Of a stretch of 64,000 nt of DNA, positions 36,076 to 44,811 are shown in pieces (position 1 is the stretch's first letter; each line of letters starts with the position of its first letter). Source of the stretch: Bdellovibrio reynosensis (GTDB lineage: Bacteria; Bdellovibrionota; Bdellovibrionia; Bdellovibrionales; Bdellovibrionaceae); the NCBI RefSeq assembly GCF_022814725.1, contig NZ_CP093442.1, positions 2,914,001 to 2,978,000 on the forward strand. Reading direction: 5' to 3'. Position numbers and translations under genes: made by a program. The notes beneath the pieces are model-generated. The model was not told the DNA's origin and did not search any database. It was given only the letters and a program-made list of their open reading frames with translations.

Positions 36076-36224
36076 ACATCTCCTTAAGCTTTTTTGCCGC
36101 TACTAAAACGGTAACGGGGCTTCGCAAGGGGAACAACCCGCGGGGGAAAACTTATCAAAATACAAATACCTGCCTTACGGATTTATTAATCATACTGTGA
36201 GTAATGAAACTTTTTGGAGGATCT

Positions 36225-36752
36225 ATGAAAGCAGTCATTATGACGTTGGTCTCTCTTTCTTTTCCGCTCGCAGCTGTGGCGGCAGTAACACCGGATGATA
36301 AACCAGTTGCGATTATTATAAATGATCCCGAAGGCAAAGAGGTCGGCGCATTGAATATGACCCAGGAAAAAGATGGCGTGCGCGTGCAAGTGAATTTAAA
36401 AATGATGAAGCCTGGGACTTATGCTGTTCATTTTCATGAAAACGGGTCCTGCAAAGGGGCGGATTTTAAATCTGCTGGCGAGCATTTTAATCCGAATAAA
36501 CAAAAGCATGGTGCCCATGCGGGGGACTTAAAGAACATCGAAGTGAAGGCGGATGGCACTGGAGAGATAGCCGAGTTAAATACTAAAGTTTCTTTACGTG
36601 AAGGGCCTAACTCACTATTGAAGTCAGGCGGCACTGCGATTGTTGTGCATGAAAAGGCTGATGATTATAAAACTCAGCCTTCGGGTGGTTCGGGTAAAAG
36701 AATTGCTTGTGGTGAGATTAAACGGCCGGATGAGACGAAGGTGAGTCAGTAA
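36225..36752 (+). CDS. sodC: Copper/zinc superoxide dismutase
   Basis: The 175-residue periplasmic enzyme dismutes superoxide. It has a signal peptide (MKAVIMTLVSLSFPLAAVA) and the metal ligands in AVHFHENGSC, GEHFNPNKQKHGAHAGDL and AIVVHEKADDYKTQPSGGSGKR, with the disulfide pair in NGSC and RIACGEI. Start 36225 follows GGAGG by four bases; an ATG at 36204 is too early. The gene ends four bases before the convergent ankyrin gene. It should protect the predator's periplasm from oxidants met in prey. Confidence 0.95.
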   Translation: MKAVIMTLVSLSFPLAAVAAVTPDDKPVAIIINDPEGKEVGALNMTQEKDGVRVQVNLKMMKPGTYAVHFHENGSCKGADFKSAGEHFNPNKQKHGAHAGDLKNIEVKADGTGEIAELNTKVSLREGPNSLLKSGGTAIVVHEKADDYKTQPSGGSGKRIACGEIKRPDETKVSQ

Positions 36753-36756
36753 AGAC

Positions 36757-37413
36757 TCACTCAGTTGTTGAAAGAAGATTAACCGTTCTTTGATCTTTAT
36801 TTTGTCGTGCGATATCAAGGGCTGTTAGGCCCTTTTTATCTTTAATATTCCTTTTTGCGCCTTGGTCAATTAAATATCTTGTCACCTCGTGATTGCCGAA
36901 ACGAACACTGCGTGAAAGAGGCGTTTCTCCTTCTGCATTTGTTTTATTCAAGAGTTCTTTATTTTTTTCCAAGATCATTTTTGTCGTCTCAAGATTGTTA
37001 CCGGCAGAGCCAATGAGTAGAGTATCTTTTCGAGAATTAGGAATCACTTGATTGACATCTGCACCCGCGCCAATGAGTCGTTGTGCTACCTCATAATGAT
37101 CTCCGTTGATGGCTGCAGACAGTGCTGTTTGACCTTTTTTAGTTTTCAGTTCTATGTCGGCTCCATTTTTCAACAAGAGTTCGACGACATCTATTTGTCC
37201 ACCAGCCGCGGCACTGATAAGAGGGGTGTAGCCTTCTTCATCTTGAGAATTAATATTAAGTTTTCCTTGTTCTAAGCTTTCCTTTATTGACTCCATATTT
37301 CCAGTTCGCGCAGCCTCGATTGCTGAGTTAATTACTTCGGACTTGGAAAAAGAGTTTTGTGCAAATGCGCTTAGCGTGATAACAGCAATGAAAAGGGTGA
37401 ATACAGATTTCAT
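36757..37413 (-). CDS. Exported ankyrin-repeat protein, candidate immunity partner
   Basis: The 218-residue protein has a signal peptide (MKSVFTLFIAVITLSAFAQ, cut near AFA) and then about five ankyrin repeats filling the rest: EGYTPLISAAAGGQIDVVELL, KGQTALSAAINGDHYEVAQRL, DTLLIGSAGNNLETTKMIL, EGETPLSRSVRFGNHEVTRYL and KGLTALDIARQNK. It starts four bases inside the PBP4-type gene upstream (ATGA overlap), so the two are translationally coupled. By analogy with Bd3460 of Bdellovibrio bacteriovorus, which binds the prey-wall endopeptidases Bd3459 and Bd0816 and shields the predator, I infer a self-protection role for this periplasmic protein. Binding itself cannot be read from the sequence. Confidence 0.85.
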   Translation of the reverse strand: MKSVFTLFIAVITLSAFAQNSFSKSEVINSAIEAARTGNMESIKESLEQGKLNINSQDEEGYTPLISAAAGGQIDVVELLLKNGADIELKTKKGQTALSAAINGDHYEVAQRLIGAGADVNQVIPNSRKDTLLIGSAGNNLETTKMILEKNKELLNKTNAEGETPLSRSVRFGNHEVTRYLIDQGAKRNIKDKKGLTALDIARQNKDQRTVNLLSTTE

Positions 37414-38750
37414 TTTTCGTCTCCTGCCGATATGGCGAATTGCTCTATGAGATTTGAGTCTTTATCAAAAGGTAGTGGAATGAGTTTTCTATAGTTCAAA
37501 CGTTGCGGCCCACCATTGTTCCTTAATAACTCAAGTACCTTTTCTTTAATTGGACCGATTGCTAGGTCTGCATCCTCTTTGCTTTCTGCTTGGTATAGAA
37601 CGGCAAAATAGAATCTTCCTCTTGCTGTTGAAGCAACACCAGCTAATGTTTTTGCTATATTTACTGTTCCAGTTTTGGCGATAACCGCATTTTCAAATAA
37701 TCCAGTGAAGTCTTCGAGTGTAGATTGATTGTCTGTGCGAGCAACAGCCATTATGTCTGTTAATTTTAGATTCTGATTCTTCAAATACTTTTCGACCTTT
37801 ACCATAGTTTTAATAACCGCTGGACATGTGCCTGTATTATAAGTGTCTTTACCTGAACCATTCAGATAGCGTGCATTGTTACCCGAACCAAGGTGGAATT
37901 CGAGTTCCGCGGGACTGACAGCTAATGATGATTGAATAAATTTATTAAATTCACTAGTTCCACCAAGGTTCCAGAAGAGATGATCTGCGATATAGTTATT
38001 AGACTTGTTGTTCATGTTCTTCAAGATGCGGTGAAGGGGTGAGGATCTATATATAAACGTTCTAGTTTGTCCAGTTCTATAGAATTGAGATCTGGGTTTA
38101 AATTCTACTCTACGAGCGCTTATATTTGAAATGGGCGCTATCAGAATACCATCATCATTTGCTTCTGATTGAAGCTGTCTAAACTGTGTTTGGTCCAATT
38201 GTATACCAAAGCCATAGCTTAGATTTCTTTCAGTTGCTGCATTCTGATCATTCTGTGTTTTAAAAAAGGGGGTATTTCCACCTATTCGGTCAGGTTGTTC
38301 CAGACGCCAATCAAATAGCACGTTTTCATCAAAGCTTAATGTCTCTATTCTGTTGATATTAAAGCCAAGCTGACTCAATTCAGACATTATATAGTACGCT
38401 GCTCTTTGTCCTAAGGCAGGATCCTTTGAGCCCTCCATATGAATGTCTATTGAATCACCTCCTACTGGGGTCACATGAAACTTGGTAATGAATCTATGAT
38501 TAATTCCCAGTCGTTCCATCGCCCATAGCGAAGTCATAATCTTGGAAACGGATGCTAATGGTTGTCTACGATTTTTAACGTAATCTCCCTCGATGGGAGA
38601 ATTGGGTGTCTCGCTCTGATAACAAAAGGCTTCGGCCTTGCCTTGTTGTTCTTCGACGACGGGATCAGTTTCCTCAGTGCCATTTGAAGTACAACTTGTA
38701 AGTAGAGAGATGAATATTACAACGATCAGAAATCTTCCCTGAAGTTTCAT
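37410..38750 (-). CDS. PBP4-type D-Ala-D-Ala carboxypeptidase/endopeptidase lipoprotein
   Basis: The 446-residue protein is a peptidase S13 (DacB/PBP4) family member. It has a lipoprotein signal ending LLTSC (Cys20) and all three penicillin-binding motifs: S67-V-S-K70 (SxxK, ASVSKIMTSLWA), S250-N-N252 (SxN), and K359-T-G361 (AKTGTVN). The stretch between SxxK and SxN is about 180 residues, shorter than in E. coli PBP4, implying reduced inserted domains. It would cut D-Ala-D-Ala or cross-links in peptidoglycan, as the prey-rounding enzymes of Bdellovibrio do. AGGAG lies five bases before ATG 38750. It is coupled to the ankyrin gene 36757-37413 and is a paralogue of the gene at 39526-40899. The lipid anchor differs from that paralogue. 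Confidence 0.88.
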   Translation of the reverse strand: MKLQGRFLIVVIFISLLTSCTSNGTEETDPVVEEQQGKAEAFCYQSETPNSPIEGDYVKNRRQPLASVSKIMTSLWAMERLGINHRFITKFHVTPVGGDSIDIHMEGSKDPALGQRAAYYIMSELSQLGFNINRIETLSFDENVLFDWRLEQPDRIGGNTPFFKTQNDQNAATERNLSYGFGIQLDQTQFRQLQSEANDDGILIAPISNISARRVEFKPRSQFYRTGQTRTFIYRSSPLHRILKNMNNKSNNYIADHLFWNLGGTSEFNKFIQSSLAVSPAELEFHLGSGNNARYLNGSGKDTYNTGTCPAVIKTMVKVEKYLKNQNLKLTDIMAVARTDNQSTLEDFTGLFENAVIAKTGTVNIAKTLAGVASTARGRFYFAVLYQAESKEDADLAIGPIKEKVLELLRNNGGPQRLNYRKLIPLPFDKDSNLIEQFAISAGDEK

Positions 38751-38875
38751 TGTCACTCCTGTGCAACGACAGGGCCGGATTTAGATCGTGGCCCCTGAAA
38801 CTAAAATGTTAGGGAATGCATGAGATTACGACAAGGATGGTCGGTTTAGTATTTTAAAATGCAAGGCTGGAGCGG

Positions 38876-39514
38876 TTATTTTGTGGTTAGTAGTTTTGCA
38901 ACAGCGTGGTTTTGTGCCTTGTTTGCTATGTCTAGAGGCGTTCTGCCTTTTTCGTCTTTGAGCTGAAGATCAGCACCTGAGGACTTTAGAATCTTCACAG
39001 TTTCCTCGTTTCCGTGCTTAGCTGCTTCATGAAGAGGCGTTTTTCCGTACTTGTTAGTCTTGTTTATTAGAGTTGGATCCCTTTTTAAAATAAGTTCCAT
39101 TAACTCGTTCATATTCACAGAAGTTGAAAGAATAAGTGCCGTATCAGAATGCTCACTTTGATCAGAAAGTTCGGCACCTGCGTTCACTAATAACTTTGCT
39201 GTTTCATTCTGCGTGTTTGTTATTGCATAGTACAGAGCTGTTTTTTCTTCTTTGTCTTTCAGATTTAACTTCGCTTTTTTAGCGATTAGAAACTTAACCA
39301 CTTTGTTTTGCCCGTTAGCTGCAGCAATCATTAGTAGAGTTTCACCCTTACCGTTAGTTTGATTCACGTCTGAACCCTTTTCGATAGCTTGAGAAATTAT
39401 CGAAAATTTGCCTTCGTAGGCGGCTTGAAATACATCAACGGTTTTCTTCTGCGCTCCGAAGCCGGCAACAGGTACTATAAGAATGGCGCAAATTAAATGT
39501 AACAGTTTTTTCAT
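38876..39514 (-). CDS. Exported ankyrin-repeat protein, candidate immunity partner
   Basis: The 212-residue product has a signal peptide (MKKLLHLICAILIVPVAGFGAQ) and five ankyrin repeats: EGKFSIISQAIEKGSDVNQ, KGETLLMIAAANGQNKVVKFL, EKTALYYAITNTQNETAKLL, DTALILSTSVNMNELMELIL and YGKTPLHEAAKHGNEETVKIL, then GRTPLDIANKAQ. Start 39514 is preferred (AGGG eight bases upstream, signal peptide begins at once); ATG 39523 is a near alternative. It lies 11 bases after the PBP4-type gene 39526-40899, repeating the enzyme-ankyrin order of the neighbouring pair. A protective role is inferred as for the other ankyrin gene. Confidence 0.85.
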   Translation of the reverse strand: MKKLLHLICAILIVPVAGFGAQKKTVDVFQAAYEGKFSIISQAIEKGSDVNQTNGKGETLLMIAAANGQNKVVKFLIAKKAKLNLKDKEEKTALYYAITNTQNETAKLLVNAGAELSDQSEHSDTALILSTSVNMNELMELILKRDPTLINKTNKYGKTPLHEAAKHGNEETVKILKSSGADLQLKDEKGRTPLDIANKAQNHAVAKLLTTK

Positions 39515-39525
39515 GGGTTGCATCC

Positions 39526-40899
39526 CTAGTTCAACTTATTGTTCAGCTTAGTTTCTTCTACGAAATTAGCATAATCGTCAGTTGGTGTCATTGCGCCAAT
39601 TTGTTCATAGTTGAACGCCTTAAGTTTCAGTCTCCCAATAAATAAAGTCACTACGTCACGAATATAAGATCTAGCCAGACCCGCATTGGTTCGGTCTAGA
39701 GAGTCAGGGTTAGTATATACAGCGAAGTAAATAGCGCCTTCGCTTGTCGATAGCATTCCACCAAAAGTAATCGCTTCATTTGCAGTGCCAGTTTTTCCTG
39801 CGATGGTATTCTGAAAAACCGAACCACCATAATAGTGCTTAAGTGTGGAATTCAGCTCTTCTTTTCCTCCTACAGGCATGACGTCAGCGAGTTGAAATTG
39901 CTTGGAGCCTTTATACGCTTTAATCATATGATCTAGATCTTGGACAATTCTTACAAAAGCGTTGCAGCTAACCGTGTTGTCAAATCGATCCGGCTTTGTT
40001 GAGTTTATCGGATATCCTGAACCATTTTTTACTGAAACCTGACTTCTAATCCCAAGTCTATTTTCTATAAAGTTTGAATAAGCTTCTGTACCACCTAATT
40101 TTTCGAACAATATATTTGGTGGTATATTGAACGAATAGGCATTGAACTCTCTCATCATCATGTATAAGGGACGTGACTTAAATGAATAAGATTTTACTGT
40201 TGCCGTTTTTAAATACTCTTCATAAGAGACAGAGTTAACCGGACCTACAGACGAACCCTTAAATCTAGCAGGAGCGAATTTTTTTACATAATTTAAAAGG
40301 GCTGATTGAGTAGTAATTGGTCCATACCAATTATCTGGGTCTCCATCTCTAAATCCATCAGCTCTATCATCGCGATGCTGAATGACGTAAGTACCTGTCG
40401 CTTTATGAAACGGAATAACCAGTTTTTCATCGTAGGAAACTTGTTTTACTGTAGCGCAACCTTGAGCTTTAGCCTTTTCATCGAGCTGTGTGAAAGCTTT
40501 TTGAAGCATTTCCTTTCCGAAGAAGATGTCTTGATCGCCTGAGAAATGAACATGGCAGGTCTTATCTGGAGCAGTGGCACTTATAGAAACCTTGGTTTTG
40601 AACCTGTATTCCAAGCCTAGTTTTGCAACTGCCCAATGGGTCACCAAAATCTTAGAGAGTGAGGCAATACGGAACTTCTCACGTGTATCTTCTGCCGTAA
40701 CCTTGGTTGGTCGGGTGACTTGGTCATCTTTTTCTTCTGCGGCCTCTGCGGCAGTAATGTTTAATGGTTGCGTGACTGCTCCGCTCTTGTCTTCCAGATA
40801 GCACATGGCATTTACTGAATATCCAGCAAAGGAATAAGAGGAAATAATTGATACTCCTAAGATGCAAACCAATCCTCTAGCAAATAATTTTTGCGCCAT
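39526..40899 (-). CDS. PBP4-type D-Ala-D-Ala carboxypeptidase/endopeptidase
   Basis: The 457-residue S13-family protein has a Sec signal peptide (cut near SYSFAG) and the catalytic motifs S80-L-S-K83 (IASLSKILVTHWA), S256-F-N258 (AYSFNIPPN) and K369-T-G371 (IAGKTGTAN). The SxxK-SxN distance of about 176 residues again suggests trimmed extra domains relative to E. coli PBP4. It is soluble periplasmic rather than lipid-anchored, and could be exported onward into prey. AAGGAG lies seven bases before the ATG at 40899, and an inverted repeat with a GCCGATAA element lies about 65 bases upstream. With the following ankyrin gene it forms the first of two tandem modules. Confidence 0.88.
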   Translation of the reverse strand: MAQKLFARGLVCILGVSIISSYSFAGYSVNAMCYLEDKSGAVTQPLNITAAEAAEEKDDQVTRPTKVTAEDTREKFRIASLSKILVTHWAVAKLGLEYRFKTKVSISATAPDKTCHVHFSGDQDIFFGKEMLQKAFTQLDEKAKAQGCATVKQVSYDEKLVIPFHKATGTYVIQHRDDRADGFRDGDPDNWYGPITTQSALLNYVKKFAPARFKGSSVGPVNSVSYEEYLKTATVKSYSFKSRPLYMMMREFNAYSFNIPPNILFEKLGGTEAYSNFIENRLGIRSQVSVKNGSGYPINSTKPDRFDNTVSCNAFVRIVQDLDHMIKAYKGSKQFQLADVMPVGGKEELNSTLKHYYGGSVFQNTIAGKTGTANEAITFGGMLSTSEGAIYFAVYTNPDSLDRTNAGLARSYIRDVVTLFIGRLKLKAFNYEQIGAMTPTDDYANFVEETKLNNKLN

Positions 40900-41038: not shown

Positions 41039-42202
41039 TCAATCAACTACGCCATCTTCCATTATCTGCGCGCCAATATCCCAAGACGTTCGTTCACTAT
41101 TTTTATCGGATTGGCCATGCATGAAGGCTGCGATTTTCTCATGCAAGTTGTAACTATCGTTTATTCCTTCGACCGGAAAATAGTTGAAGGTATAAATAAT
41201 TTTTCCGGCCTGCGTGTATATCAACTCTTTTTCCGTGGGCGCAAGACCTAAACTATTAAAGTATTGTACTGATTGTTGAAACCTGTTGTCGATGTCGCTA
41301 TTTCTGTAGTTAGGACAGGTTTTGCTTTTGCATTTAACCCGTGGTTTAAATGTGTCGCCATATTCGTAGGCTGTTCTTAATAGCAAGCTAGGTGCTACAT
41401 AAATGCCCGAATTGTCTATATTCCATAATGGGCTTCTGAATGACTTGTGTCTTGCTAGATAAGGCAGAATTGAAGGAGCATTGAAATAATTCTGAAACTG
41501 ACGGATCAATTCTGCCTGGTATACTTGCTCAATTTGAGTATGATCTAAAGAATTGCTGCACTCTGTTTCGTTAAGGCTTTTTAAGCTGCCGTCAAACTCT
41601 TTTTCGATCGTGTTTAGCTGTTGAAAAATTGCGAATGATTCAACTACAGCACAACCAAGTTTTTCTTTAAGATAAGATGAACCTATAGCATTGTTACTAA
41701 TGGATCCCGATTCAGCAAATGCACTTTCTAATTTTTCTTCGATAAAAGAAATATACAGTAGCTCAGTATCTGTTGGATTTATATTTAATTCACTTGCAGC
41801 ACGTGGATGATTCAGGGAAATCAAAATCTCATTTAATTTGATATTAAAAAAGATTTTATCGAAGTTTTTATTGAAACTTCCAATATTCAGCGGATCTATG
41901 TTCCTTTTGATGATTTCTTCAAGAATTTGTACTTTGTTAAATTTTATAGCAAGACCAGCAGGTGTAGATGATTCACCTTCAAAGTTTGAATCTGCGGCAC
42001 TCATTTCGCCAAGAACATTTAAGAATTCCTGGTGTGTAGCGAATTCTATCGAATTTAGTAGATTTTGTTGGTTCTTTGTAAGGACATTTTTATCTGACTT
42101 TTTAAATGTATAGAGTTTCGCTACCGATTCAGTTGGATCTTTTGAAAAAGTACATCCCACTGTAAATAAGCTAAAAAGGATGATTAAGATAAACTTTATC
42201 AT
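41039..42202 (-). CDS. Lipoprotein with an ankyrin-like hairpin
   Basis: The 387-residue protein has a lipoprotein signal (MIKFILIILFSLFTVGC, lipid Cys17). Near residue 80 one segment, STPAGLAIKFNKVQILEEII plus KRNIDPLN, reads like a single ankyrin repeat; the remainder is not recognised and contains a few cysteines, including KCKSKTCPNY. It is AT-rich with many AAA, AAT and ATA codons. Its start overlaps the stop of the 42199-43473 gene by four bases; the two proteins share layout and weak similarity and look like paralogues. The position beside two peptidase-ankyrin modules suggests a related envelope role, but no function can be assigned. Confidence 0.75.
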   Translation of the reverse strand: MIKFILIILFSLFTVGCTFSKDPTESVAKLYTFKKSDKNVLTKNQQNLLNSIEFATHQEFLNVLGEMSAADSNFEGESSTPAGLAIKFNKVQILEEIIKRNIDPLNIGSFNKNFDKIFFNIKLNEILISLNHPRAASELNINPTDTELLYISFIEEKLESAFAESGSISNNAIGSSYLKEKLGCAVVESFAIFQQLNTIEKEFDGSLKSLNETECSNSLDHTQIEQVYQAELIRQFQNYFNAPSILPYLARHKSFRSPLWNIDNSGIYVAPSLLLRTAYEYGDTFKPRVKCKSKTCPNYRNSDIDNRFQQSVQYFNSLGLAPTEKELIYTQAGKIIYTFNYFPVEGINDSYNLHEKIAAFMHGQSDKNSERTSWDIGAQIMEDGVVD

Positions 42203-43473
42203 AAAACTTCCTCTTTATTTTCGCCGACAGAATTGTTCTTTTCAATATTTGGACAAACTTCAGCTTTTAGCGCTGATAAGCTTTTCTCGTGCTCTTTTAG
42301 TTCCTCGGGATTGTCATTGAGATTATCCATCGGATTGAAAATGGTGGTGACAGTGAAATCCTCGAATTGTGACGTTGGATATAGAAACTGATGAGCTTCA
42401 GTTATTGCTAAAGCATTATTATAATAGTTAGTGCATAACTCGTTGGCACACCTTTCACGGTCTTCATAATTTAAAATATGGGTTTTGAGTTGGTACTTTT
42501 CAGAGTTAAAATCTTTACCATTTTGAGAATAATCTCTTAATACATTTACCCATTGCAAAATTTTTTCTTCATCATCAACGCAGATAGATTTTAGTGCAAG
42601 AAGGGTTAATGGATTTACTTTGTGCTGGCTAGCATCGCGGTACTTTTTAACAGAACTTAGATTGATGGTAATATTCTTTGGTTTATTCAAAGATAGAATG
42701 AAAGCCATAAAGTCATTTGATTCGAAGTTATTTTGAAATTGGCTAAAGAATTCCAAAGAGGCCCACTCAGAAATCTTTTCCTTAGAGAATTGGCGGGAAC
42801 TGTCAGCGCAAGCAGACTTGGTTAAGAAGTCTCTAATAACTGTTTCTGTCGGGAGAAGATGGGTTGCTCTAAAATAAAATCCTGGAAATTCAGATGTTGT
42901 CTGAAAATATTTGATGTCCATCAGAAAGCCGGTGAACTTCTGACAGCCTCGAACATCTAATTTTAGGTCAGAAATGGATGTAAAAAACTTTTGTATGGAA
43001 TAGCCATCATCTGGATCGCCATATCCGATAGGTCTTGGGTATAAATGCACAATACCGAGAATACGATCTTTCTGCGCTGTTGTTATAATATCATTAAGAT
43101 CTTCATTAAACTGTAGATCAGAAATACTTTTTTCGTTCAAGTGAAACGGATTTAGTCCCATAATCAACAGGTGATTAAGAACTTTCGGCTTATTATATTT
43201 TATAGTGATATCTAGAAGAGATTCTTCTTTATTAGAAAACTCGTTATAAGCTTTTCCTAAACCTTTTAATTCGCGTATCGCCCGATCCTCATCCGGTTGG
43301 TTAATTATGTCAGCGATTTTGAGGGTAGGTATGACTGTTTTAGTTTCTTCAACTACTACCAATTTTACCTGTCCCGTCTTCGGATTCTTTTTAAACGAAC
43401 AAGCCCCCGCCGCCAGGAAAATGGCAGCCAGAATCAAGTGTCTCAAAATGAGAATGCGGGACGAGGTTTTCAT
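42199..43473 (-). CDS. Lipoprotein with an ankyrin-like hairpin
   Basis: The 424-residue product has a lipoprotein signal ending LAAGAC (lipid Cys about residue 25). Around residues 80-110, ESLLDITIKYNKPKVLNHLL followed by IMGLNPFHLN resembles one ankyrin repeat, matched by a similar segment in the downstream gene. The rest is unrecognised, AT-rich and Lys/Asn/Asp-rich. It is first gene of a coupled pair (ATGA overlap with 41039-42202). AAAGG lies four bases before the ATG. These two genes and the PBP4-ankyrin genes downstream are on one strand and could be one long transcription unit, although 139 bases with a possible promoter separate them. Confidence 0.75.
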   Translation of the reverse strand: MKTSSRILILRHLILAAIFLAAGACSFKKNPKTGQVKLVVVEETKTVIPTLKIADIINQPDEDRAIRELKGLGKAYNEFSNKEESLLDITIKYNKPKVLNHLLIMGLNPFHLNEKSISDLQFNEDLNDIITTAQKDRILGIVHLYPRPIGYGDPDDGYSIQKFFTSISDLKLDVRGCQKFTGFLMDIKYFQTTSEFPGFYFRATHLLPTETVIRDFLTKSACADSSRQFSKEKISEWASLEFFSQFQNNFESNDFMAFILSLNKPKNITINLSSVKKYRDASQHKVNPLTLLALKSICVDDEEKILQWVNVLRDYSQNGKDFNSEKYQLKTHILNYEDRERCANELCTNYYNNALAITEAHQFLYPTSQFEDFTVTTIFNPMDNLNDNPEELKEHEKSLSALKAEVCPNIEKNNSVGENKEEVL

Positions 43474-43848: not shown

Positions 43849-44811
43849 ATGGATTCTCTATCACTTTTATCAAATAAAGAGCTGGAATTGCGACTGAAAG
43901 ATTTAGTTCAAAAGGAAAGAAAGCTTTTACATGTGATCTTAGAACATATCCGTGAAATCGATGTTCGTAGGCTTTATCTCGAAAAAGCTTATTCCTCTAT
44001 TTATGAATACCTTACTAAGGAGCTGGGATACTCGGGTTCAGCGGCCATGCGCCGACTTGAAGCTGCTCGACTGCTTCGGGAAGTTCCGCAGGTGGCGGAC
44101 CGCATTCAAGAAGGTTCATTGAATCTTTCGCAGATAGGCGAGCTTTCCCGCGCAATAAAAGAAAAAGAGAAGGTGAGTGGCGTTAAAGTTTCCGTTCTGC
44201 AAAAGCAAGAGTTGGTGGATCAGGTGTCGGGTTTAACCGCTGGTGAAACTCAGAAAGAGGTGACTCGTGTTTTAGATCTCCCGGTCAAAGAGTTTGACAC
44301 TAAGAAAGTTCAACAGGATGAGTCGGTTCGTCTTGGAATCACTTTGTCTAAAGAGCAATACGAAAAGCTTCTTCAATGTAAAGATCTAGCCGCGCACATC
44401 TTGTTACAGGATTCTGGATCGGTCTCTTTAACTGATGTTATTGAATTTTTGGCTGATCAATATTTGGATAAAAAATTTAAGCCAGGAAAAAAGAAAAAAG
44501 AATCAGTGAATTTAAACACTGTTGCCGAGGAAAGCAAAGATTCCAGAGATGCAATAGTTACCACCGATGCGGTGGTGGAAAGAAAATCGGTTACTACGAA
44601 GCTTCGTCGTATGGTTCTTCAGCGGGATAAATGTTGTCAGTATGTGGATTTGAAGACGGGGCGGAAGTGCAAAAGTTCATTTGCTCTGCAGGTTGATCAT
44701 AAAACTTCTAAGTGGGCCGGGGGAGTAAATAGTTTGGCGAATTTGCAATTACTCTGCTCGCAGCATAACCGTGAAAAGTATAAAAAGGAGTTGAATGTGC
44801 GTTATAGATGA
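43849..44811 (+). CDS. HNH endonuclease of a Bdellovibrio-type family
   Basis: The 320-residue protein has a helical N-terminal half (LELRLKDLVQKERKLLH, SIYEYLTKELGYSGSAAMRRLEAAR) and a C-terminal HNH nuclease: CCQYV and CKSS (probable zinc cysteines), LQVDHKTSKWAGG (first His), NLQLLC (Asn region) and SQHNREKYKKEL (last His). The N-terminal part resembles a DNA-binding or DUF222-like region. Proteins of this layout are numerous in Bdellovibrio genomes and often lie alone in variable sites; their role is unknown. CGGAGG lies six bases before the ATG. A 7-bp tandem repeat begins 14 bases after the stop. Confidence 0.85.
   Translation: MDSLSLLSNKELELRLKDLVQKERKLLHVILEHIREIDVRRLYLEKAYSSIYEYLTKELGYSGSAAMRRLEAARLLREVPQVADRIQEGSLNLSQIGELSRAIKEKEKVSGVKVSVLQKQELVDQVSGLTAGETQKEVTRVLDLPVKEFDTKKVQQDESVRLGITLSKEQYEKLLQCKDLAAHILLQDSGSVSLTDVIEFLADQYLDKKFKPGKKKKESVNLNTVAEESKDSRDAIVTTDAVVERKSVTTKLRRMVLQRDKCCQYVDLKTGRKCKSSFALQVDHKTSKWAGGVNSLANLQLLCSQHNREKYKKELNVRYR

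What the first reader, a model, noticed from the sequence alone, without database searches (positions are those of the whole stretch)
36757..40899. Tandem duplicated modules of PBP4-type wall peptidase plus exported ankyrin protein
Seen: two S13-family genes with complete SxxK, SxN and KTG motifs (39526-40899, 37410-38750), each followed on the same strand by a signal-peptide ankyrin-repeat protein (38876-39514, 36757-37413), with an 11-base gap in one pair and an ATGA overlap in the other. Known: in Bdellovibrio bacteriovorus the prey-rounding endopeptidases Bd3459 and Bd0816 are neutralised in the predator by the ankyrin protein Bd3460. Inference: this genome carries two toxin-immunity-like modules, one enzyme soluble and the other lipid-anchored, each with its own cognate ankyrin. 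A lipid-anchored version, retained by the predator or inserted into a membrane, would be a new variant of the system.
Basis: partly seen in the sequence, partly recalled or inferred. Interest (0 to 1): 0.85.

Follow-up and report, generated by a model that had tools for sequence, protein, structure and literature searches.

The report
Tandem predator wall-cutter and immunity modules
A Bdellovibrio predator carries, side by side, two versions of the enzyme-plus-inhibitor pair with which its relatives reshape prey cell walls without harming themselves; its relatives carry only one version at this spot, and here one enzyme appears to have gained a lipid anchor, so the known system has a second form that can be tested directly.

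Summary
In detail: coordinates, catalytic motifs, the 11-base gap and the ATGA overlap are all exact. The genome is a complete Bdellovibrio chromosome (3,582,323 bp, the size of B. reynosensis LBG001). The site is the syntenic Bd3459/Bd3460 locus, the known prey-rounding endopeptidase and ankyrin immunity pair.

Enzyme A (37410-38750) is Bd3459-like (type A, 39% identical). Enzyme B (39526-40899) belongs to a second, monophyletic subfamily (about 25-31% to Bd3459, same fold) found in nine Bdellovibrio genomes. Each type is always followed by its own ankyrin type. All 22 other genus genomes with the locus carry either A or B there, interleaved on the species tree (4-6 switches); only this one holds both.

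Enzyme A is also the only one of 41 related enzymes with a lipobox (LTSC), followed by an acidic tether. It is the most diverged type A enzyme, yet keeps all catalytic motifs. Enzyme and ankyrin distances covary beyond species distance.

So this is not a simple tandem duplication but two old module types side by side. Lipid anchoring is predicted, and inhibition by each cognate ankyrin is inferred. Verdict: a new variant of a known system.

The parts
39526..40899 (-). Enzyme B: exported PBP4-type (S13) endopeptidase, type B subfamily; type I signal peptide ending SYSFA
   Evidence: Pfam S13 4.7e-10; Bd3459 2e-33; AF2 model Z 33-34 to Bd3459; eight orthologues at 38-53%; motifs S80-L-S-K83, S256-F-N, K369-T-G
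38876..39514 (-). Ankyrin b: exported six-repeat ankyrin protein, putative inhibitor of enzyme B (alternative start at 39523)
   Evidence: Pfam Ank_2 2.6e-32; AF2 pLDDT 91 with six repeats and an extra helix between repeats 4 and 5; top six Foldseek hits are Bd3460
37410..38750 (-). Enzyme A: PBP4-type (S13) endopeptidase, type A (Bd3459/Bd0816-like), predicted lipoprotein
   Evidence: Pfam S13 3.8e-21; Bd0816 4e-97 and Bd3459 7e-96; motifs S67-V-S-K70, S250-N-N, K359-T-G
38691..38702 (-). Lipobox LTSC of enzyme A (codons of residues 17-20; Cys20 would carry the lipid)
   Evidence: Read from the sequence; unique among 41 related S13 enzymes
38646..38690 (-). Acidic tether of enzyme A (residues 21-35, TSNGTEETDPVVEEQ) between lipobox and the start of the conserved mature region
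   Evidence: Alignment with type A enzymes, whose mature chain starts at KVYLNS
36757..37413 (-). Ankyrin a: exported ankyrin protein, putative inhibitor of enzyme A; start overlaps the enzyme A stop by ATGA
   Evidence: Pfam Ank_2 1.2e-29; Bd3460 5e-43; 39% to Bd3460
38751..38875 (-). Intergenic stretch between module B and module A; could hold a separate promoter for module A
   Evidence: 125 bases; the promoter scan finds no site there on the minus strand, and sites overall are no more than expected by chance
41039..43473 (-). Two overlapping lipoprotein genes (42199-43473 and 41039-42202) upstream of enzyme B; possible accessory pair, membership in the module uncertain
   Evidence: Homologous pair at the same place in G020 and upstream of an L,D-transpeptidase in HD100

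Best explanation
This is the Bd3459-Bd3460 prey-wall endopeptidase and immunity locus of a Bdellovibrio species that carries both forms of a two-form locus. Both enzymes are exported PBP4-type DD-endopeptidases of the predatory kind, made to cut 3-4 cross-links in prey peptidoglycan at invasion. Each is followed by an exported ankyrin protein that stays in the predator periplasm and covers the active-site cleft until the enzyme has left. Enzyme B is released. Enzyme A is lipidated at Cys20 and stays tethered to the predator envelope, most likely the outer membrane, so that it cuts locally at the predator-prey contact while ankyrin a protects the predator's own wall. Shown by sequence: gene anatomy, homology, synteny, the two types and their distribution, intact catalytic motifs and the lipobox pattern. 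Inferred: enzymatic activity, inhibition by each cognate ankyrin, lipidation, location and timing.
For: Same gene order as the HD100 Bd3459-Bd3460 locus and 21 other genus genomes. Enzyme A homologous over its length to Bd3459 and Bd0816. Enzyme B has the Bd3459 fold (Z 33-34 against 23 for PBP4). Ankyrin b matches Bd3460 best and has six repeats with an extra helix between repeats 4 and 5. Types A and B of enzyme and ankyrin always match in the genus. Enzyme and ankyrin distances covary beyond species distance (partial r 0.58-0.88, p at most 0.0012). Lipobox only in enzyme A. HD100 experiments on activity, inhibition and self-rounding: PMC3276566 and PMC4686830.
Against: No binding, activity or expression data for this species. 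Bd3460 inhibits two enzymes of 63% identity, so one ankyrin could in principle cover both. The covariation test only partly removes shared ancestry. Enzyme A has lost the W-G or x-G pair that nearly all type A enzymes keep in the C-terminal helix region near which Bd3460 binds, so its mode of inhibition may differ. Enzyme B differs in an N-terminal insertion and the model is of middling confidence (pLDDT 67). No dedicated signal-peptide predictor was available.
Confidence: 0.6

Rival explanations
1. Redundant protection: the tandem is real, but both ankyrins inhibit both enzymes. Having two is a dosage effect and not a pair of specific immunity modules.
For: In HD100 Bd3460 inhibits both Bd3459 and Bd0816 (PMC4686830).
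Against: Bd3459 and Bd0816 are about 63% identical, whereas A and B share only 26-27% and differ in the N-terminal region and the C-terminal helix region. The ankyrins have diverged in step with their own enzymes, and no genome in the genus pairs an A enzyme with a b-type ankyrin or the reverse.
Confidence: 0.25
2. Enzyme A has left predation: the anchored form remodels the predator's own wall (growth, shape or bdelloplast exit), and ankyrin a is its regulator rather than an immunity protein.
For: Unique lipobox and tether and the longest type A branch with intact motifs fit a new task. An anchored enzyme facing the periplasm would reach the predator's own wall.
Against: The genome keeps a separate housekeeping-type S13 enzyme. 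The ankyrin is kept next to the enzyme, and the locus is the predatory one.
Confidence: 0.2
3. The lipobox is a chance pattern, and enzyme A is cleaved by signal peptidase I and released like its relatives.
For: Prediction is from sequence only; no dedicated signal-peptide predictor was available.
Against: The N-terminus has K2 and R6, an uncharged hydrophobic core, LTSC at Cys20 and no A-x-A site, whereas relatives carry such a site at the aligned position. The start codon has a good ribosome-binding site.
Confidence: 0.12
4. Evolutionary rival: the tandem is not a kept ancestral state but arose when a second module was brought in next to the resident one by transfer and recombination in the shared flanks.
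For: A and B alternate at one site across the genus. Species topology is rejected for both module trees. No relics of a lost module were found.
Against: Deep species nodes have only 18-48% support, so the conflict may be noise. Both window modules have the base composition of their neighbours. The window's B enzyme and ankyrin group with those of G015, G020, G001 and G018, near neighbours in the species trees.
Confidence: 0.45

Closest known systems
Bd3459-Bd3460 of B. bacteriovorus HD100 (endopeptidase and ankyrin immunity protein, PMC4686830)
   Same: Same genomic site and gene order; enzyme A 39% identical, ankyrin a 39% identical; S13 enzyme followed directly by an exported ankyrin protein
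   Different: Two modules instead of one; enzyme B is of a second subfamily; enzyme A has a lipobox and tether; each enzyme has its own ankyrin
Bd0816 of HD100 (second prey-rounding endopeptidase, PMC3276566)
   Same: A second predatory S13 enzyme in the genome; enzyme A is 38% identical to it
   Different: Bd0816 lies elsewhere in the genome without its own ankyrin and shares Bd3460; here the second enzyme is in tandem with its own ankyrin
PBP4/DacB housekeeping enzymes (E. coli PBP4; Bd3244)
   Same: S13 fold and the three catalytic motifs
   Different: Enzyme B superposes much better on Bd3459 (Z 33-34) than on PBP4 (Z 23); no ankyrin partner is described for PBP4; this genome has its own separate housekeeping-type copy
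Bd1180-Bd1181 of HD100 (predicted ankyrin and L,D-transpeptidase pair, PMC4686830)
   Same: The two lipoprotein genes upstream of enzyme B are homologous (25% and 31%) to a pair just upstream of an L,D-transpeptidase in HD100, probably this locus
   Different: Here the pair precedes a DD-endopeptidase module; the ankyrin character of these lipoproteins is not significant in Pfam

Membership tests
Predatory S13 endopeptidase (Bd3459/Bd0816 type), enzyme A | SxxK, SxN and KTG motifs and homology to Bd3459/Bd0816 over the whole mature chain | tested here: met
   Bd0816 4e-97 over residues 50-436 and Bd3459 7e-96 over 42-437; motifs aligned
Predatory S13 endopeptidase (Bd3459/Bd0816 type), enzyme A | Signal peptidase I signal ending in A-x-A, giving a released enzyme | tested here: not met
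   LTSC lipobox instead, unlike all other 41 enzymes; so enzyme A is filed as a variant of the type
Predatory S13 endopeptidase, enzyme B | Bd3459 fold in preference to the PBP4 fold | tested here: met
   AF2 model, Z 33-34 over 340-362 residues to Bd3459 against Z 23 to PBP4; model confidence middling
Predatory S13 endopeptidase, enzyme B | Falls within the Bd3459/Bd0816 clade | tested here: not met
   Type B is a separate clade at 100% support; filed as a second subfamily
Bd3460-type ankyrin immunity protein | Exported ankyrin gene directly downstream of an S13 endopeptidase gene | tested here: met
   Both ankyrins; 11-base gap and ATGA overlap
Bd3460-type ankyrin immunity protein | Six repeats in a 4+2 arrangement | tested here: met
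   Ankyrin b model: six helix pairs, with an extra helix (147-151) between repeats 4 and 5; ankyrin a was not modelled
Bd3460-type ankyrin immunity protein | Binds and inhibits the partner enzyme and protects the predator from self-rounding | not testable with these tools
   Shown only for HD100 (PMC4686830)
Bd3459-Bd3460 locus | Conserved genomic context | tested here: met
   Same flanking genes in the window, HD100 and other genus genomes
Prey-invasion genes | Expression peak at 15-30 min of invasion | not testable with these tools
   Known for bd3459 and bd0816 only (PMC3276566)
Bacterial lipoprotein | Positively charged n-region, uncharged hydrophobic core, lipobox with Cys at position 15-35 | tested here: met
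   MKLQGRFLIVVIFISLLTSC, Cys20; lipidation itself not tested

The most novel reading that the evidence does not exclude
The Bd3459-Bd3460 site is a genus-wide two-form toxin-immunity locus whose forms do not cross-protect. It is kept diverse by selection between predators (exclusion of rivals from the same prey) or by differences in prey walls. This species, which carries both forms, has turned one enzyme into a membrane-tethered cutter with its own inhibitor that works only at the predator-prey contact.
Probability: 0.15. Interest if true: 0.78.

Novelty: new variant of a known kind. Interest (0 to 1): 0.52.

Why it matters
Bd3460 was described as the first self-protection protein of a predatory bacterium, and its authors asked for more genomes to see how enzyme and inhibitor co-evolve (PMC4686830). 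The comparison here shows a second enzyme-ankyrin type, in nine genomes, that replaces the known type at the same site. One complete genome holds both types and is a ready test of inhibitor specificity. A lipid-anchored form would show that a prey-directed wall enzyme can be kept on the predator.

Tried and rejected
Simple recent tandem duplication was rejected: the enzymes are 26-27% identical and fall in different clades at 100% support. Recent foreign DNA has no support from base composition. Relics of the missing type in single-type genomes were sought with tblastn and none was found. The lack of the locus in G009 is probably an assembly gap: its best helicase matches are only 34-41% identical, so the flanking helicase seems missing too. 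The promoter scan was uninformative: 9 sites found against 10.5 expected. The AU test of species topology was inconclusive because deep species nodes are weak. VIA-align for ankyrin b does not separate Bd3460 from other ankyrins. The genome-contig scan with the type B alignment returned only two Bdellovibrio-group MAGs and one weak match in another phylum. A fold of enzyme and ankyrin together was not attempted: the tool folds single chains of the window's own proteins, and the genes are in different frames. My first lipobox scan of the search loci missed many ORFs and was redone.
Full report
What is there. On the minus strand, in transcription order, lie enzyme B (39526-40899), ankyrin b (38876-39514), enzyme A (37410-38750) and ankyrin a (36757-37413). 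Both enzymes match Peptidase_S13 and both partners match ankyrin models. SxxK, SxN and KTG are intact in both enzymes. The whole genome holds three S13 enzymes (these two and one housekeeping-type copy at 3202345) and three Ank_2 proteins, two of which are these. The cluster is therefore not chance.

Which organism. The genome is one contig of 3,582,323 bases in the genus of G006, whose length of 3,782,950 is that of B. bacteriovorus HD100. By length the window's genome fits B. reynosensis LBG001 (3.582 Mb in the table of PMC11656739). In the same way G002 fits Tiberius, G005 NC01, G012 ZAP7, G013 strain W, G016 kdesi, G021 SKB1291214, G022 KM01 and G023 SSB218315. These names are inferred from length, not from labels.

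Which locus. I fetched about 17 kb (less on short contigs) around each enzyme in 22 other genus genomes and compared gene orders. The flanking genes are the same in the window, in HD100 at Bd3459-Bd3460 and in the others. At this site every genome has an S13 gene followed by an ankyrin gene. Fourteen genomes carry a type A (Bd3459-like) module and eight carry a type B module; only the window has both, in the order B, b, A, a. The extra, dispersed Bd0816-like enzyme occurs only in the HD100 group (G002, G006, G016, G023) and has no ankyrin beside it.

Two types, not a duplication. Enzyme A matches Bd0816 and Bd3459 at 1e-95 to 1e-97 and is 38-39% identical to them. Enzyme B matches Bd3459 at 2e-33, is 38-53% identical to eight other enzymes and forms a clade with 100% support, separate from type A. 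The AF2 model of enzyme B (mean pLDDT 67, pTM 0.73) superposes on Bd3459 and Bd0816 at Z 32-34 over 340-362 residues and on E. coli PBP4 only at Z 23, so it shares the predatory fold. The ankyrins also split into an a set and a b set that follow the enzyme types without exception in the genus, although support for the ankyrin split is low to moderate. The ankyrin b model (pLDDT 91) has six repeats with an extra helix between repeats 4 and 5, like the published 4+2 arrangement of Bd3460 (PMC4686830). Its six best Foldseek matches are Bd3460 chains.

Distribution. On trees from the flanking genes and from rpoB plus gyrA, types A and B are interleaved. The clearest case is G010 (type B), sister at 100% to four type A genomes. 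The minimum number of switches is 4-6. If both modules were ancestral, 5-7 losses of A and 6-7 of B are needed. The species topology is rejected for both module trees, but the deep species nodes have only 18-48% support, so I cannot decide between an ancestral tandem with losses and exchange at the site. No relics of the missing type were found. Base composition gives no sign of recent arrival.

The lipid anchor. All other type A enzymes have a signal peptide ending in an A-x-A type site followed by KVYLNSMC or a close variant. Enzyme A instead reads MKLQGRFLIVVIFISLLTSC-TSNGTEETDPVVEEQ-QGKAEAFCY. This fits the bacterial lipoprotein rule, with Thr at +2, which in E. coli would send it to the outer membrane (established knowledge, not tested here). 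No other of 41 related enzymes has a lipobox, and a second scan of 41 distinct enzymes from the fetched loci found none. Enzyme A also has the longest type A branch and the largest mean distance to its relatives, while keeping every catalytic motif. That pattern suggests a changed task rather than decay. In Bd3459 the signal-peptide cleavage site belongs to the ankyrin-binding face (PMC4686830), so ankyrin a must tolerate a tether there.

Cognate pairs. Within type A and within type B, enzyme distances and ankyrin distances are correlated beyond species distance (partial r 0.82-0.88 for A, 0.58-0.84 for B, permutation p 0.0002-0.0012). This fits co-evolving partners but is not proof of binding. 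Shared ancestry is only partly removed, and Bd3460 itself serves two enzymes.

Mechanism proposed. As shown experimentally for HD100, the enzymes cut prey cross-links, and the ankyrin, held in the predator periplasm, prevents self-damage (PMC3276566, PMC4686830). I infer the same for B with b. For A with a, I infer local cutting by an envelope-tethered enzyme. Steps shown: gene content, homology, synteny, distribution, motifs, lipobox. Steps inferred: activity, inhibition, lipidation, location, timing.

A wider pattern seen in passing. Upstream of enzyme B lie two overlapping lipoprotein genes (41039-43473). A homologous pair lies at the same place in G020. In HD100 (L181) the pair lies directly upstream of a YkuD L,D-transpeptidase, probably Bd1180-Bd1181, which Lambert et al. 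predicted to be another self-protection pair. In G005 it lies upstream of a polysaccharide deacetylase. The window's genome has two more copies next to proteins without a Pfam match. The pair thus lies next to wall enzymes of at least three chemistries. Its ankyrin nature is not significant in Pfam.

Literature. Searches for Bd3460 and for Bd3459 with Bd0816 found no report of a second type, of a tandem or of a lipid-anchored form in the titles, abstracts and passages I read, within an open-access library only. PMC5941755 notes ankyrin genes as limited to periplasmic Bdellovibrio. PMC7137782 notes that NC01 lacks Bd0816.

Verdict. The better description is two old alternative module types in tandem, one with a predicted lipid anchor. 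It is a new variant of a known system, with specificity and anchoring still to be tested.

Noticed in passing
41039-43473 (-): Two overlapping lipoprotein genes form a pair that recurs next to different wall enzymes: a type B S13 module here and in G020, an L,D-transpeptidase in HD100 (L181 6810-11405) and a polysaccharide deacetylase in G005 (L185 5791-9397). It may be a second family of envelope partner or self-protection proteins.
   Followed up: partly
L182 2900-5354 and L183 4871-7173: Two more copies of the lipoprotein pair in the same genome, next to proteins without a Pfam match.
   Followed up: partly
36204-36752 (+): A Cu/Zn superoxide dismutase gene, convergent with ankyrin a, sits beside the module in the window and in G001, G007, G018 and G020, whether the module is type A or type B.
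   Followed up: no
L093 5200-8443: In G027 (another genus of the family) two S13 enzymes in tandem are followed by a single ankyrin gene: an independent tandem with one ankyrin.
   Followed up: no
L103 5838-8753: In G075 (another genus of the family) the S13 gene lies at the same site, directly abutting the helicase gene, with no ankyrin gene between them.
   Followed up: no
43849-44811 (+): A DUF222/HNH endonuclease gene lies just upstream of the cluster and is not shared by the other genomes at this site.
   Followed up: no
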